IMG/VR virus record: IMGVR_UViG_3300024344_000052
Coordinates: 1-36,775 of that record
Origin: a virus
Reading direction: 5' to 3' (one strand)
Length of the DNA stretch: 36,775 nucleotides
Part shown: positions 6,151-24,206 of the stretch, in pieces
How positions within the stretch are numbered: position 1 is the stretch's first letter
Layout: the number at the start of each line of letters is the position of its first letter
Notes under the pieces: model-generated
Seen by the model: the letters and a program-made list of their open reading frames with translations, nothing else
Told to the model about the DNA's origin: nothing
Database searches by the model: none
Made by a program: the position numbers and the translations under genes

Positions 6151-6250
6151 AAAAAAAAAGAGCCGACCGGTTACCCTTACAAACTTTGTGTTACGCTGTT
6201 TGCGAGGTTGGCATCGAAGGTAAGTTAAAAACCGGTCGCCTCAAAGGCTC
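6151..6250 (-). terminator. Structured attenuator/terminator before the CII-like gene
   Basis: On the minus-strand RNA, GAGCC (6246-6250) and GACCGGTT (6230-6237) pair with AACCGGTC (6165-6172) and GGCTC (6160-6164). This gives 13 bp interrupted by an 8-base bulge, closing a 57-base loop that itself holds a CTTAC/GTAAG pair and ACAAAGTTTGT. Nine U residues (6151-6159) follow at once. The CII-like start codon is only 27 bases further on. It reads as an intrinsic terminator acting as attenuator, or as the 3' end of a small RNA. Confidence 0.6.
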
Positions 6251-6290
6251 GGTGTGGGCTGCAACTCACACCGGGCCGCTTTATCCGCGG

Positions 6291-16043: not shown

Positions 16044-16427
16044 GATTCCCGCCGACAATCTTCATAATTCGTACCGCTTGACCGTTCCACTCCCCTAGAT
16101 CCTCTGCAGTGAATGCATCCAGCTCACGCAGAGAAAAGTGAAATACGTAAGCAATGTCCGCTAGAGTGTCTCTCCATCCGTGGGGGAATCGTCCAAAAAA
16201 TCGGTAATGACCCCCGTCACCCGCATAAAATCAGAGGCATCCATCATATTGACACTGTCCTCTGGAATACTGGCCAAGGTTGCTGCCATCACCGCCATTT
16301 TTTGGATATCGCCGCCCACCAGGTCGAATTTTTTCATATCGCGAACAGTCGGCCTGCGAATATTCAGCTCTGTGACTTCGACCTTGTTCACCAGTACCGG
16401 GTATTTCAGTGTGATTTGGGTTGTCAT
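16036..16427 (-). CDS. Tail chaperone frameshift product (E+E'-type), 130 residues
   Basis: A -1 shift at the slippery heptamer 16194-16200 replaces the last ten residues of the short chaperone with 52 others. The new part reads GRFPHGWRDTLADIAYVFHF and continues with LRELDAFTAEDLGEWNGQAV. ADIAYVFHF-x4-LDAF-x4-LGEW matches the P2 GpE' family. The product ends at TGA 16036-16038, overlapping the tape measure start by 8 bases. Long tailed phages make both forms, and the ratio controls tape measure wrapping by tube subunits. Frame, motif and slippery site agree; the shift itself is inferred. Confidence 0.8.
16161..16427 (-). CDS. Tail assembly chaperone, short form (Mu gp41/P2 E-like)
   Basis: An 88-residue protein: TTQITLKYPVLVNKVEVTEL, NIRRPTVRDMKKFD, then two helices with a central Met/Asp-rich turn. 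This is the phage tail assembly chaperone E/gp41 family. It lies between tail tube and tape measure genes as expected. Its stop is in-frame only if the ribosome does not shift at 16194-16200. Confidence 0.85.
   Translation of the reverse strand: MTTQITLKYPVLVNKVEVTELNIRRPTVRDMKKFDLVGGDIQKMAVMAATLASIPEDSVNMMDASDFMRVTGVITDFLDDSPTDGETL
16194..16200 (-). promoter_or_regulatory. Programmed -1 frameshift slippery site T TTT TTG
   Basis: In the zero frame codons 76-78 read GAT TTT TTG, giving the heptamer T TTT TTG in the X XXY YYZ phase. The same heptamer is the reported slippery site of the P2 E/E' chaperone. The -1 frame stays open for 52 codons beyond it and encodes a GpE'-like domain. Confidence 0.8.
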
Positions 16428-16439
16428 AATGTCTCGCTT

Positions 16440-16796
16440 TTATTGTTCGTCTACAGATTGCCCGGATAACTTCAGGCTGATTTCACCGGCCCCGGAATCC
16501 AGTTGTGGCGGCTCCATTGTCCAGGCGTTACGCATGTGGAAAACCACACCGGTATCTGTCGTCACAATCGCCAGGGCATCCACAATGTCCGCCAATTCTC
16601 GGATTGACTGATCCGCAGTGTGCGCTACCTTCATATCCAGTTCTGGAGGTTGAGGATCTTCCTTGTATAAAAACTCACCGCCCGCATAAATGGCCTCTTT
16701 GTTTGCACCATCCAGCGTCAGCGTCGCTCCTGGCAAAGACCGAATGACATTCCCGTCAATCCTAATTTCAACCAGACCTGTTACTTGAGTTGCCAT
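16440..16796 (-). CDS. Tail tube protein (Mu gp40/M-like)
   Basis: A 118-residue protein: QVTGLVEIRIDGNVIRSLPG, then ATLTLDG and EEDPQPPELDM-type segments (YKEDPQPPELDMKVAHT), matching the Mu-type tail tube family. It builds the inner tube of the contractile tail. AGGGGGTAGATT lies before the ATG. Its place between sheath and chaperone genes is that of Mu gpM. Confidence 0.9.
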   Translation of the reverse strand: MATQVTGLVEIRIDGNVIRSLPGATLTLDGANKEAIYAGGEFLYKEDPQPPELDMKVAHTADQSIRELADIVDALAIVTTDTGVVFHMRNAWTMEPPQLDSGAGEISLKLSGQSVDEQ

Positions 16797-16813
16797 AATC
16801 TACCCCCTACAGA

Positions 16814-17038
16814 CTAAAAGAACGTCGGTTTTGCAACCGCTCGGGTAAGAGCCATCAGCCCGGTTTGCAAATCAGTTGCGCCGATTGATACCCATTGTTG
16901 ATCGATGTTCTCCAATGCCCTCAACCTTTGACAGAGATGATCTAGCTCAACACCTAATAGCTTGATATCATTCATAAGCTCTATTTCGGACTCTGAAAGC
17001 TCCCGATAACTTTTTATTTTCCTGTGTTGGTTTTCCAC
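16814..17038 (-). CDS. Acb2/Tad1-like cyclic nucleotide sponge (anti-CBASS/Thoeris)
   Basis: A 74-residue protein with a GTG start behind GGGGGGTAGATC. It begins with ENQHRKIKSYRELSESEIEL and ends with a WVSIGATDLQTGLMALTRAV helix and a short KPTFF tail, the pattern I know from proteins called Acb2/Tad1 hairpin-domain (DUF7681). Family members bind and sequester cyclic di- and trinucleotides or gcADPR signals made by CBASS and Thoeris defence, without cleaving them. It is translated in the tail operon between sheath and tube, so it would be made with late proteins. Family recognition is from memory of motif layout; ligand is unknown. Confidence 0.72.
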   Translation of the reverse strand: MENQHRKIKSYRELSESEIELMNDIKLLGVELDHLCQRLRALENIDQQWVSIGATDLQTGLMALTRAVAKPTFF

Positions 17039-17050
17039 GATCTACCCCCC

Positions 17051-18511
17051 CTATCTAAACTCAGAATGAACCGCAGTAATCCGCAGTTGCCCGACCAGAT
17101 CCGGATTCTCATACACATCCAACCGGCTCTTATTACTGCCGTTGATCTGCAGCGTCAGGGTTGACTTATACCCCTCATACCCCTGCATCCAGCCGTTGTC
17201 GATCGCTTCCTGATACGTCGCAAGAATCACCGGCTTAACCGTCTTAGGCTGAGCAATCGCCTGGCCGCGAGTCACATTCACCGTATCATCGGCCAGCTTA
17301 TGCCGTGGATACTGCGCGGCAATCCGAGAGCGCAACAAAAACCGCCAACGCTCAAGCGTCTCAGCAGTATTGATATAAAGGTAAGCATCGTCCTGCAGGT
17401 TTGAACTGTTGACCTGGTACATACTGATCTGCGCCTCGATCTGCACCGTGCCATCCCTCTGAACCCGATGCGTCGCAATGCCATCAAAGAGCAGAGTATT
17501 GCGCTCGGAATCGTCCCAATGATCCTCAATCTTCGCAGGCAAAACCCCCTCAAGCTCAAGAGAGACCAACTGCCTCGCCGGATCATTGGTCAGATTAAAC
17601 GCCCCAACCGCACCATTCACCGCCGCCCAGATCCACGGCGGTGTCGGGCTGATATTCGTCCCCATCGCCGTCACATGCGGATTATTCCGACCGTTGCCAA
17701 ACGCAGCAGTCGCCGCCAGATTACCGCGAAATGCGGTAAATGCCCGACCGCCGATCTGACGTAAAGGCCCAAATCTTGAATCCAGCTCGTTTTCCAAAGC
17801 CAGCAAATTCGGCGTATCCGTCCACGGCGTCACATACCAGTTCCACCATTCATCGCCAAACGCAGCAATCGCCGTATTAATATCCGGATTGGCTGTACCG
17901 CCTGCCATCGCAACAATCGCCACCGCTACACCGGCAGGTGTCGTCTCACCAAAATAATTAAACCGCACATCGATATCGTTACCGGTTTCACCCTTCCATC
18001 GGCATGTCAGCGTAACAACCGCCAGAGTCGCACTGGCCGTCACCGGCAAATCAGTCTGCAAAGTAATCGCCGCCGCAATGGCCGCCGCGATCGTCGCATC
18101 GGTATCGCCACTGGTCACGCCCACCTGGACCCGATAGCCCGCAATATAAAGATTCAAAGTCCCACTGCTCGTCGCAGGCCCGGTGATCGTTAATGTCCCG
18201 GTCGCATTCGCACCCGCGCCGTTTTCATCCAGAGCGATCGCCCACATCTCCACAAACGGCTCGGCCTTTTTCGCCGCCTTGATCATCTCAGCCAACTGAG
18301 AACCACGACCAAAATAGCCTTCCGTCACCTCGCTGTTGCTGGTAATCAACGTCGGCACCGCCTGGGCAACGCTTCCCGCAGCCAGCTTTTGACCGATGAG
18401 CAGCATTTTAAAAGCAATAACCGGGTTACCCGCCAGCCGTGGATCGAACTCCACATAAACGCCCGGTATTCTCAGATTTGCCGGAATTTCGTTAAATGAA
18501 ATCTCGCTCAT
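17051..18511 (-). CDS. Contractile tail sheath protein (Mu gp39/L-like)
   Basis: A 486-residue protein: ISFNEIPANLRIPGVYVEFD at the start, KMLLIGQKLAAGSVAQAVPT, then PDINTAIAAFGDEWWNWYVT, and SYLYINTAETLERWRF-type C-terminus (DDAYLYINTAETLERWRFLL). These are hallmarks of the Mu-type sheath. Length matches the family. The ATG overlaps the DUF2635 stop (ATGA). Confidence 0.95.
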   Translation of the reverse strand: MSEISFNEIPANLRIPGVYVEFDPRLAGNPVIAFKMLLIGQKLAAGSVAQAVPTLITSNSEVTEGYFGRGSQLAEMIKAAKKAEPFVEMWAIALDENGAGANATGTLTITGPATSSGTLNLYIAGYRVQVGVTSGDTDATIAAAIAAAITLQTDLPVTASATLAVVTLTCRWKGETGNDIDVRFNYFGETTPAGVAVAIVAMAGGTANPDINTAIAAFGDEWWNWYVTPWTDTPNLLALENELDSRFGPLRQIGGRAFTAFRGNLAATAAFGNGRNNPHVTAMGTNISPTPPWIWAAVNGAVGAFNLTNDPARQLVSLELEGVLPAKIEDHWDDSERNTLLFDGIATHRVQRDGTVQIEAQISMYQVNSSNLQDDAYLYINTAETLERWRFLLRSRIAAQYPRHKLADDTVNVTRGQAIAQPKTVKPVILATYQEAIDNGWMQGYEGYKSTLTLQINGSNKSRLDVYENPDLVGQLRITAVHSEFR

Positions 18512-18687
18512 TTTTTATCTCCTTTCGGTGGCTTGGCCTCGAGCACGCTGCCATCCCTCAGCCGTCGTATCCAGAATGGGGTTTTATCCACAAGTGCCCC
18601 CGCATCCGGCAACACATTACGCAGATTCCCCGGCATCCGAACGACATATTCTGGCTGCGCCGGTTTAACAAAAATCTTCTTCAACAT
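18508..18687 (-). CDS. DUF2635 protein (Mu gp38-like)
   Basis: A 59-residue protein, MLKKIFVKPAQPEYVVRMPG followed by a PDAGALVDKTPFWIRRLRDG segment and a basic tail, matches DUF2635. This small protein lies directly before the sheath gene in Mu-like phages; its function is unknown, perhaps sheath assembly. It has a GGGTGATTT leader and overlaps the sheath start by 4 bases. Confidence 0.85.
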   Translation of the reverse strand: MLKKIFVKPAQPEYVVRMPGNLRNVLPDAGALVDKTPFWIRRLRDGSVLEAKPPKGDKK

Positions 18688-18697
18688 AAATCACCCA

Positions 18698-19204
18698 TTA
18701 TTGAGCTAAAGTTTCTTCACTAATCATCACCGGATCATCCGCTGTCCCGCCAAAATTGCTCTCTGCATGAAACAAAATAAAATCCGCCAGCCCGGAAATA
18801 TCCGGACAATTAAAATCAAACGGTCCAACCTTCGATTCCACCGAAATCCACCCGTAAGGCGCATCCAACTGTCGGCTCTGAATAATGCGATCCAATGGTA
18901 TGTTCAAGCGCATCGCCGCCTGAAAAGCCATCACCTCATCGATCATCGTCAGCTCGGCCTCTTCAATCGCCAGGCCCCCGGCATCGTCTTCCGTCTTTAT
19001 TTGTCCGACGAGGATAAAATCGACGTATCGCTTATAGATCGAATCCTCGGAAATGCCCTTGCTGACAAAGGAATAAACCCCTTTTCTCAGCTCCTGTTCG
19101 TCGCGGTCTGAAAAATCTTTTAGTTCCCGTACCACTAGCCGATGAGTCAGTCCGGACTGCAATCCAGCCCGCATCTGCTCCATAATCACACCCGATTGGC
19201 TCAT
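18698..19204 (-). CDS. Mu gp37-like protein
   Basis: A 168-residue protein with HRLVVRELKDFSDRDEQELR, GVYSFVSKG and RLNIPLDRIIQSRQLDAPYG, consistent with Mu gp37-type tail terminator or joining proteins. It overlaps the gp10-like gene stop (ATGA). Role in capping the tail and joining it to the head is inferred from position. Confidence 0.7.
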   Translation of the reverse strand: MSQSGVIMEQMRAGLQSGLTHRLVVRELKDFSDRDEQELRKGVYSFVSKGISEDSIYKRYVDFILVGQIKTEDDAGGLAIEEAELTMIDEVMAFQAAMRLNIPLDRIIQSRQLDAPYGWISVESKVGPFDFNCPDISGLADFILFHAESNFGGTADDPVMISEETLAQ

Positions 19205-21614: not shown

Positions 21615-24206
21615 TTAAAGATTCACACGATCAATACGCGCAGCTGCACTGAACAGCACAATCGAAGTCAATGCACGCTTAAGCTGAGTCGGTGTGTGCA
21701 GGATCAAAAACTGATCCCCATAGGCTTCTTTCTTTCCAGTAAAACGCCCATTGGCATCTTTCTGATTCTCCAGCTCGCCCATCGTCCACGGTTTCATCAT
21801 CCGCAACCGCGTCTGACCCCGCTCACCGAGGACTACCCGCTGGTCGCCCATCCACAGCCCAGGCGCGGAGGTTTTAAAGTTCGGAATATCCTTGACCCGT
21901 CCCAAATTCCCGTCCATAGACAAATCCGTACCGGGTCGTTTACTGTTGGCACCAAACTGCTTGGCCTGCTCGATCTGCGTCATCGCCGTACCGCTCATCA
22001 AACCGAAATTAGCCCGGTGATACCGCTGGTCCTCGATCACGCTCTTGCGTAATCCGTAGCGATACAAAAACCCATCCCAATGCGCATCGACATCCGCAGC
22101 CCCCGGATCGGTATCAAACTGGAATGCATTGGTTGCATAGCTGTAATCGACCAGCAACGCATCAGTACCGCCCGGCGTTTGAATCACACCCGCCTCGTTA
22201 ACGATATAAATCTCGCCAACATTGTAATTAATCACGTAATAATCACCGGCAGCCTGTGCCCCAGAGCCATCATATTCGTTGATTGCACCACCTTTAAAAG
22301 TGACCGTAATCGGGTTGACAGTAGCGCCCACCTGGCTGCCGTTCAGATCGTACTGCGCCCGAGGATGCACAACCGGAAAATTCACCAAAGTGAAAATGCG
22401 ATTCGTGCCATTGGTCTTTGGCCCCAGATCCTCAGCCGACACCGCCACAGACACATATTCATCCGCGGCTCGCAACTGCTCGTTAAAAATCATCTGCTCC
22501 GTATCTTCCGCAATAATCCGGCTGGCATTGCGCTGATTTTCGACCAGCGCATCCCAGTTCAAAATCCCGGATTGCGTCAAATACCGCAACTCGTCCGATA
22601 CCTCAAACGCAATTTTTTGCGGAATCGGGTAGGCTGTTTCAGAATCCTGAATCACTCCCGCGCGTGGAATAGAGCCGCCTTCATAAGTGCGCGTATTATT
22701 CCGTCCTGCGGCAGCAGGGTCACGATGTGAATACGGAATCAGCGCAGAACTGGCAAAGGGCAGGGTACCCGAGTCCACAAACTGCAAACCCACCAACTGA
22801 TACACCGCCTCACGAATCACCGTCCGCTCGAAAATCGCCGGGACCGCCACATCGGCCACCACGCCGTCGCCACCGGACAGCAATTTATGCTCCCTGGCAA
22901 GATCATCCCCATGCCGGGCGTCATACATCGCCAGCACTTCGTCCGCCAAAGCCTTATTCTCAGCCAAAAGCACACCACCAGTACTTGCATAACGCCGCGA
23001 GTCGGGCTGACTGGAAAGATTCAACCGTTTATCCACAGACTCCTGCAGCGCTTTGACATTATTCGAATCATCGACAGTAATATGCACGCTGCCCGACGGC
23101 CCGGCAAAACCCTTCGCCGCCAGTTTCGCATTGACCGCAATCTGATTGCCCAGGGCGATCTGATGTTCCGCCAGTGATTTGACCTGATCCTCACTCATCT
23201 CCGCCGTGATCATATCCCGCGCAGAGCGAACAATCGCCAGAGAATCTTCCGAGAGAGCTTTCAGACCCTCCGAAGCATCAATCAAAGTATCGAATTGTCC
23301 CTGTCGAGTTTCCAGCGTCTCCGCCAGCTTCTTTGCGTCGGCCGCCCGCGCATCGTCACGCTCAGCCAAAAGTTTTTCCACATCCGCCGCAGTTAAACCC
23401 GCACCCCCCGCAGAATCCGGCATCTTAATATCCAAAGTCACCGCCCCCGATCCCGAAGCCTCGGCCAGAGTCTTGCCGGTGTCCTCAAACTGAGAAAACA
23501 AAGCCTCCATCGCCGCTTTATCCTCGCCCAAAGTCTTCGCCGACAGCTCAAACGCCGCAACCAGCTTCTGTACAATGGCCTCCGACAATTTCAGCTCGCC
23601 GAATTTTTGGTTCAGTAATTTAATCAGTTCCTTCATATTCATAATTGCGCTCTCGCTTAGTTTGTGGGCAAGTTCAGGGTTAAAAAATGTTTTTACATTG
23701 TCTTCGGCAGTGGGTTCAGATAGGCGTACAGGATCCAGACGCTTTATAACGGGACGGGTGGTCAAACCCGCACCCTGCAAAAGAGTCCCATGTTTCTCAC
23801 CGGTCTCGTTATCCCGGAAATTCTCATGGAAATCGGCGCTTAAATAGATAAAACCGCGCTTCTGCACAGCCTCAAGCCCGTATTCAGTCCAATCGACCTC
23901 CGCAAGCAATCGCCCGTCAGAAATCGTTAACGACTTAATCGTCCCGGCCGAACCATTTTTTGGATTGTGTTCAACATCAATAAAAATATTTTGCCCGTAC
24001 GTATTTTTATTGAAGTTATCGACCATCGATAACAGCATTGCCTCAGAAATCTCAAACCGCCCATAACGCGGATCCGAAAAGTGGCCGGTACGCAGCACCG
24101 TGACAGTACTGGTTTTATCCTCTCCGAGTGTGATTTCGCCCGACAGAAAACGGACGATCACCGGGTTCCCAGGCTCACTCAATAATATTCGTTTCGAATC
24201 ACTCAT
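21615..24206 (-). CDS. Fused prohead protease-scaffold-major capsid protein
   Basis: An 863-residue polypeptide. Residues 1-170 match the Mu I-type protease: IFIDVEHNPKNG with D77 and H80, VDWTEYGLEAV, and YLSADF with S123 as likely nucleophile. Residues about 195-370 are helical and charged, as in scaffolds (LSEAIVQKLVAAFELSAK; KLLAERDDARAADAKKLAET). From about 455 on is a major capsid domain (FERTVIREAVYQLVGLQFVD, YPIPQKIAFEVSDELRYLTQ, then GLRKSVIEDQRYHRANFGLM). In Mu these are separate genes. Self-cleavage would release the capsid protein. No internal start with a good ribosome site was noted. A promoter and terminator lie just upstream. Confidence 0.88.
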   Translation of the reverse strand: MSDSKRILLSEPGNPVIVRFLSGEITLGEDKTSTVTVLRTGHFSDPRYGRFEISEAMLLSMVDNFNKNTYGQNIFIDVEHNPKNGSAGTIKSLTISDGRLLAEVDWTEYGLEAVQKRGFIYLSADFHENFRDNETGEKHGTLLQGAGLTTRPVIKRLDPVRLSEPTAEDNVKTFFNPELAHKLSESAIMNMKELIKLLNQKFGELKLSEAIVQKLVAAFELSAKTLGEDKAAMEALFSQFEDTGKTLAEASGSGAVTLDIKMPDSAGGAGLTAADVEKLLAERDDARAADAKKLAETLETRQGQFDTLIDASEGLKALSEDSLAIVRSARDMITAEMSEDQVKSLAEHQIALGNQIAVNAKLAAKGFAGPSGSVHITVDDSNNVKALQESVDKRLNLSSQPDSRRYASTGGVLLAENKALADEVLAMYDARHGDDLAREHKLLSGGDGVVADVAVPAIFERTVIREAVYQLVGLQFVDSGTLPFASSALIPYSHRDPAAAGRNNTRTYEGGSIPRAGVIQDSETAYPIPQKIAFEVSDELRYLTQSGILNWDALVENQRNASRIIAEDTEQMIFNEQLRAADEYVSVAVSAEDLGPKTNGTNRIFTLVNFPVVHPRAQYDLNGSQVGATVNPITVTFKGGAINEYDGSGAQAAGDYYVINYNVGEIYIVNEAGVIQTPGGTDALLVDYSYATNAFQFDTDPGAADVDAHWDGFLYRYGLRKSVIEDQRYHRANFGLMSGTAMTQIEQAKQFGANSKRPGTDLSMDGNLGRVKDIPNFKTSAPGLWMGDQRVVLGERGQTRLRMMKPWTMGELENQKDANGRFTGKKEAYGDQFLILHTPTQLKRALTSIVLFSAAARIDRVNL

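What the first reader, a model, noticed from the sequence alone, without database searches (positions are those of the whole stretch)
16814..17038. Acb2/Tad1-like anti-defence protein inside the tail operon
A 74-residue protein with the QHRKI, ISIG-x-x-x-LQTG and LTRAVA-x-P pattern sits between sheath and tube genes. Known Acb2/Tad1 proteins sequester CBASS or Thoeris cyclic nucleotide signals. Late-operon placement would mean high expression when defence is triggered.
Basis: partly seen in the sequence, partly recalled or inferred. Interest (0 to 1): 0.62.

Follow-up and report, generated by a model that had tools for sequence, protein, structure and literature searches.

The report
Acb2 signal sponge between tail genes
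A temperate phage carries, tucked between two of its tail genes, a short standard copy of Acb2, a known protein that soaks up the bacterium's cyclic-nucleotide alarm signals; the protein is ordinary, and its position is unusual for this tail type but not unique.

Summary
The ORF is real: minus strand, 16814-17038, GTG start, 74 aa. It is a member of the Acb2 family. It scores 56.8 bits against Pfam PF24729 (cut-off 27), matches solved Acb2 chains 8h2j and 8ixz (E 2e-16 and 7.5e-16), and a profile of 42 relatives also reaches T4 Vs.4 (7uq2). The predicted fold is the Acb2 helical hairpin; top Foldseek hits are Acb2 8h2x and T4 Vs.4. Seventeen positions are invariant across 42 relatives, including Y11 (equivalent to T4 Y8, the cyclic-dinucleotide-binding tyrosine) and K26. 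It is not Tad1: no N-terminal beta domain. The 74-aa form is common (349 relatives in IMG/VR; 232 phage records with a match). The closest relatives lack it and join the two genes with an 11-bp gap. A distant phage (L011) has acb2 in the same slot; a sheath tree requires two separate changes. In 16 annotated phages acb2 sits in structural modules in nine and in replication or early modules in five, so late placement is common and not diagnostic. High late expression is plausible but untested. Verdict: confirmed, new member of a known kind, low novelty.

The parts
16814..17038 (-). acb2: 74-aa Acb2-family cyclic-oligonucleotide sponge (GTG start)
   Evidence: Pfam PF24729 56.8 bits, GA 27; PDB 8h2j/8ixz; profile also finds T4 Vs.4 7uq2; AF2 pLDDT 89.2; Foldseek top hits are Acb2 8h2x then Vs.4
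17051..18511 (-). tail sheath gene, immediately upstream in the operon
   Evidence: PF04984, phrog_165 E 1.9e-177
16440..16796 (-). tail tube gene, immediately downstream in the operon
   Evidence: PF10618 81.4 bits, phrog_185
16161..16427 (-). tail assembly chaperone (E/41/14 type)
   Evidence: PF10109
14340..16058 (-). tape measure protein
   Evidence: PF20155 E 1.6e-34
17039..17050 (-). 12-bp sheath-acb2 gap with a G-rich Shine-Dalgarno-like run; the leader resembles that of the tube gene (GGGGGTAGATcgTGG versus GGGGGTAGATtaTGG)
   Evidence: the resemblance is second-highest of 406 leader pairs in the window, so only suggestive

Best explanation
The gene encodes Acb2, an anti-CBASS sponge. 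The small two-helix protein most likely forms a hexamer and binds host cyclic di- and trinucleotides tightly without cutting them, so CBASS effectors are not activated. It lies in the tail operon with 12 and 17 bp gaps to sheath and tube and with no promoter-like site of its own, so it is most likely transcribed late together with the virion proteins. Shown here: family membership, predicted fold of the monomer, conservation of the key tyrosine, operon position, absence of the gene from the slot in the closest relatives. Inferred: hexamer, ligand binding, ligand range, late timing and amount.
For: PF24729 at twice its cut-off. phmmer to Acb2 chains 8h2j and 8ixz, E 2e-16 and 7.5e-16. The profile finds T4 Vs.4/Acb2 7uq2. 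AF2 model, pLDDT 89.2, short helix at 11-13 then helices 16-41 and 47-69, as described for Acb2 (PMC10419184). Foldseek top hits are Acb2 8h2x (prob 1.00) and Vs.4 with cGAMP. Y11 aligns with T4 Y8, whose mutation disrupts cyclic dinucleotide binding (PMC12657218; alignments). K26, R66, P71 and the C-terminal F74 are invariant in 42 relatives. Position and gaps; no promoter-like site in 16400-18800.
Against: No binding or phage assay. Hexamer not modelled. The helix-helix loop is 19 aa shorter than in the solved PaP2 Acb2; the 74-aa length is nevertheless the common form in nature. Foldseek TM-scores are moderate (0.65-0.67 by query). NCBIfam and PADLOC have no matching model.
Confidence: 0.92

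Rival explanations
1. It is a Tad1-type protein that mainly sequesters Thoeris gcADPR.
For: Tad1 shares the hairpin domain in the Pfam model PF24729 Acb2/Tad1 hairpin.
Against: Only 74 aa, with no N-terminal antiparallel beta-sheet, which is part of Tad1 (PMC12043709). PDB sequence searches, one protein and profile, return Acb2 and Vs.4 but no Tad1 chain; Foldseek shows no Tad1 among the best 50.
Confidence: 0.02
2. It is a structural or assembly protein of the tail (for example a sheath terminator or chaperone) that happens to share the hairpin.
For: It sits between sheath and tube genes with tight spacing.
Against: 78 of 83 related sheath-tube junctions have 61 bp or less and no gene there. 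Relatives of this protein occur beside portal, terminase, capsid, ssDNA-binding, exonuclease and topoisomerase genes in unrelated phages, including podophages with no sheath.
Confidence: 0.03
3. It is an Acb2-family protein that has drifted to another ligand or lost binding, for example under pressure from Panoptes, which punishes phages carrying Acb2.
For: Phages T2 and PaMx41 carry damaged acb2, and Panoptes selects against Acb2 (PMC12657218). The window has S10 where nearly all relatives have G10.
Against: All invariant positions are kept, including Y11 and K26. The near-identical L002 has G10 and an otherwise almost identical gene.
Confidence: 0.05

Closest known systems
Pseudomonas phage PaP2-type Acb2 (PDB 8h2j, 8h2x, 8h39, 8ixz, 8iy0-8iy2, 8j8o)
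   Same: Same family, collinear over the full length, with matching N-terminal signature, Y11, K26 and C-terminal F; predicted fold matches 8h2x
   Different: Loop between the two long helices is 19 aa shorter. In Pseudomonas phage 119X, whose 93-residue match is 43% identical, the gene lies in the replication region next to DNA polymerase, primase and MazG, not in the tail operon
Phage T4 Vs.4/Acb2 (PDB 7uq2)
   Same: Same fold, equivalent binding tyrosine (T4 Y8)
   Different: Sequence very divergent; found only with a profile. T4 F82 aligns with the family-invariant A69
Acb2 of Vibrio phages H188 and 1.087.A, Acinetobacter phage Ab9, Beetrevirus vB_Pae-SS2019XII
   Same: PF24729 matches for the first three and tblastn match for the last; acb2 lies inside head/tail operons (directly before the tail sheath in 1.087.A, and before the equivalent tail protein gene in H188)
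   Different: None of these has it between sheath and tube
IMG/VR contig 2627854152_000001 (L011)
   Same: acb2 in the same sheath-tube slot
   Different: Sheath 46%, tube 36% identical, separate clade of the sheath tree

Membership tests
Acb2 (anti-CBASS 2) | Sequence match to the Acb2/Tad1 hairpin profile above the curated cut-off | tested here: met
   56.8 bits, cut-off 27, residues 10-70 on profile 1-58 of 58
Acb2 (anti-CBASS 2) | Homology to solved Acb2 proteins over the full length | tested here: met
   8h2j and 8ixz, T4 Vs.4 7uq2 with the profile
Acb2 (anti-CBASS 2) | Short N-terminal helix plus two long antiparallel helices | tested here: met
   AF2 model pLDDT 89.2; Foldseek top hits 8h2x and 7uq2
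Acb2 (anti-CBASS 2) | Conserved cyclic-dinucleotide-binding tyrosine (T4 Y8) | tested here: met
   Y11, invariant in 42 relatives (mutation effect from PMC12657218)
Acb2 (anti-CBASS 2) | Homohexamer | not testable with these tools
Acb2 (anti-CBASS 2) | Binds and sequesters cyclic di- and trinucleotides; rescues phage from CBASS | not testable with these tools
   Needs ITC or gel shift and plaque assays
Tad1 | N-terminal antiparallel beta-sheet domain before the two helices | tested here: not met
   Protein is 74 aa and all-helical in the model
Phage tail structural protein | Conserved member of the sheath-tube gene block | tested here: not met
   78 of 83 related junctions have no gene there

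The most novel reading that the evidence does not exclude
The sheath-tube junction of Mu-like tails is a recurrent cargo slot, into which acb2 has been placed at least twice independently, so that the sponge is made with the virion proteins just when assembly products can trigger CBASS.
Probability: 0.2. Interest if true: 0.4.

Novelty: new member of a known kind. Interest (0 to 1): 0.2.

Why it matters
It shows that a counter-defence gene with a clear function is commonly hidden as a hypothetical protein inside virion gene blocks: in all 16 annotated phage records inspected it is called hypothetical or, once, an NAD/FAD enzyme. It adds a case where acb2 sits in a tail operon whose nearest relatives lack it there, which makes a with/without pair for testing what the gene does for a phage.

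Tried and rejected
Tad1 identity: rejected (length, no beta domain, no PDB hit). Tail-structural role: rejected (slot empty in relatives, gene present in phages without sheath). PADLOC and NCBIfam: no model matches. Near-identical phage DNA in the phage collection: none for window 12000-36775 or L011. Idea that acb2 was inserted with a duplicated ribosome-binding leader: the acb2 and tube leaders share 13 of 15 bases, but that pair ranks second of 406 pairs in this window, and the L011 pair is not its best match, so it is left as suggestive only. Idea that late-operon placement is a special property of acb2: 9 of 16 annotated phages against 5 in replication or early regions, and mixed neighbours in about 65 IMG/VR loci; this is about what I would expect from the share of structural genes in such genomes, though no formal null was computed. 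Original papers on Acb2 tried by DOI are not held; reviews and the Panoptes paper were used.

Full report
Observation. The ORF 16814-17038 lies on the minus strand, has a GTG start and encodes 74 aa: MENQHRKIKSYRELSESEIELMNDIKLLGVELDHLCQRLRALENIDQQWVSIGATDLQTGLMALTRAVAKPTFF. The GTG aligns with the first methionine of relatives, so the N-terminus is right. The gene lies between a tail sheath (17051-18511) and a tail tube (16440-16796), followed by tail chaperone, tape measure and DNA-circularisation-type genes. The gaps are 12 bp on the sheath side and 17 bp on the tube side. The phage is temperate by gene content: integrase, CII-like regulator and Ant-type antirepressor.

Identity. Pfam PF24729 (Acb2/Tad1 hairpin) scores 56.8 bits with a cut-off of 27. 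phmmer against PDB finds the Acb2 chains 8h2j and 8ixz at E 2e-16 and 7.5e-16; 8H2J is the PaP2 Acb2 hexamer with 3'3'-cGAMP (PMC11722364). A profile of 42 relatives reaches T4 Vs.4, 7uq2, at E 1.5e-4. The AlphaFold2 model (mean pLDDT 89.2, pTM 0.72) has a short helix at 11-13 and two long helices at 16-41 and 47-69, the described Acb2 architecture (PMC10419184). Foldseek ranks three chains of Acb2 8h2x first and Vs.4 with cGAMP next. No Tad1 entry appears and the Tad1 beta domain is absent.

Binding residues. Invariant in 42 relatives are M1 N3 Q4 H5 I8 Y11 R12 L14 K26 W49 T55 Q58 M62 R66 A69 P71 F74. Y11 corresponds to T4 Y8, whose mutation disrupts cyclic dinucleotide binding (PMC12657218; alignment, where the chain numbering appears shifted by one). 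That K26 also contacts the ligand is from memory and was not checked in a held paper. The only oddity is S10 where nearly all have G; the near-identical phage L002 has G10. The loop between the long helices is 19 aa shorter than in PaP2 Acb2, but the 74-aa length is the common form in nature.

Mechanism. Established for the family (PMC10419184, PMC12043709, PMC11722364): Acb2 is a sponge, a hexamer that holds three cyclic dinucleotides and, at independent sites, two cyclic trinucleotides, and so blocks CBASS effectors without degrading the signal. The same property makes it a trigger for the Panoptes system (PMC12657218). I infer the same mechanism here. Late expression follows from operon position and the lack of a promoter-like site nearby, but is not shown.

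Position. In the closest sheath relatives, L083 and L084 (sheath 65%, tube 70% identical), sheath and tube are 11 bp apart and acb2 is absent from the slot and from the rest of the records held. Of 83 related sheath-tube junctions, 78 have a gap of 61 bp or less. The rest hold a SEC-C-motif protein (L126, PF02810), a 62-aa ORF of unknown type (L130), gaps of 241 and 81 bp without a listed ORF (L135, L136), and acb2 (L011). L011 came in through the acb2 search, not the sheath search, so none of the 82 independently found junctions has acb2 in this slot. In the sheath tree the window and L011 lie in separate well-supported clades and none of 200 bootstrap trees joins them, so two changes are required. 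The tool warns that L011 is a long branch. Two gains is the simplest reading; one old gain with many losses is not excluded. In 49 related records acb2 occurs in three: L011, L004 (where it lies between a DUF1804 gene and a 578-aa gene that is followed by a Mu-type portal; the sheath on the same contig is L113) and one more distant copy.

Is late placement special? In 16 annotated phage records acb2 lies in a head, packaging or tail module in nine (Ab9, Thiohalocapsa LS06, Mwe-JY05, PB119, 1.087.A, PS6, Lsp-JY19, SS2019XII, H188) and in a replication or early module in five (119X, Ac42, D69, MQM1, B8b); two are unclear (CHOED, 1.204.O). Neighbours of about 65 IMG/VR loci are likewise mixed: ssDNA-binding proteins, exonucleases and ribonucleotide reductases on one side, terminase, portal, protease, capsid and tail on the other. 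This is compatible with free movement of a small gene rather than targeting to late operons. In H188 and 1.087.A acb2 directly precedes the sheath (or equivalent tail protein) gene, so tail-operon placement is not new either.

Verdict. The protein is a standard Acb2, new only as a member. The point of mild interest is the second, apparently independent use of the same sheath-tube slot.

Noticed in passing
L126, sheath-tube junction (269-bp gap): A different small gene, a 73-aa SEC-C-motif protein (PF02810, 38.5 bits), occupies the same sheath-tube slot; L130 holds a 62-aa ORF with no Pfam match there.
   Followed up: partly
window 17039-17050 versus L002: The G-run in the acb2 leader is 7 in the window and 8 in the near-identical L002, the only difference besides S10G in the compared stretch; could be a sequencing difference or a variable tract.
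   Followed up: no
L011, about 6230-6255: A perfect inverted repeat GTTATCCGGAATTTCCGGATAAC lies between acb2 and the tube gene, possibly an attenuator or terminator.
   Followed up: no
phage records MN536027, OR577172: The Acb2 homologue is annotated as 'NAD/FAD-utilizing enzyme', probably a wrong name passed between records; PHROG phrog_717 that holds the family has no function label.
   Followed up: partly
window 21615-24206: An 863-aa ORF looks like a fused head protease/scaffold and capsid protein (phrog_328 at residues 28-311; weak phrog_22848 match at 610-839).
   Followed up: no
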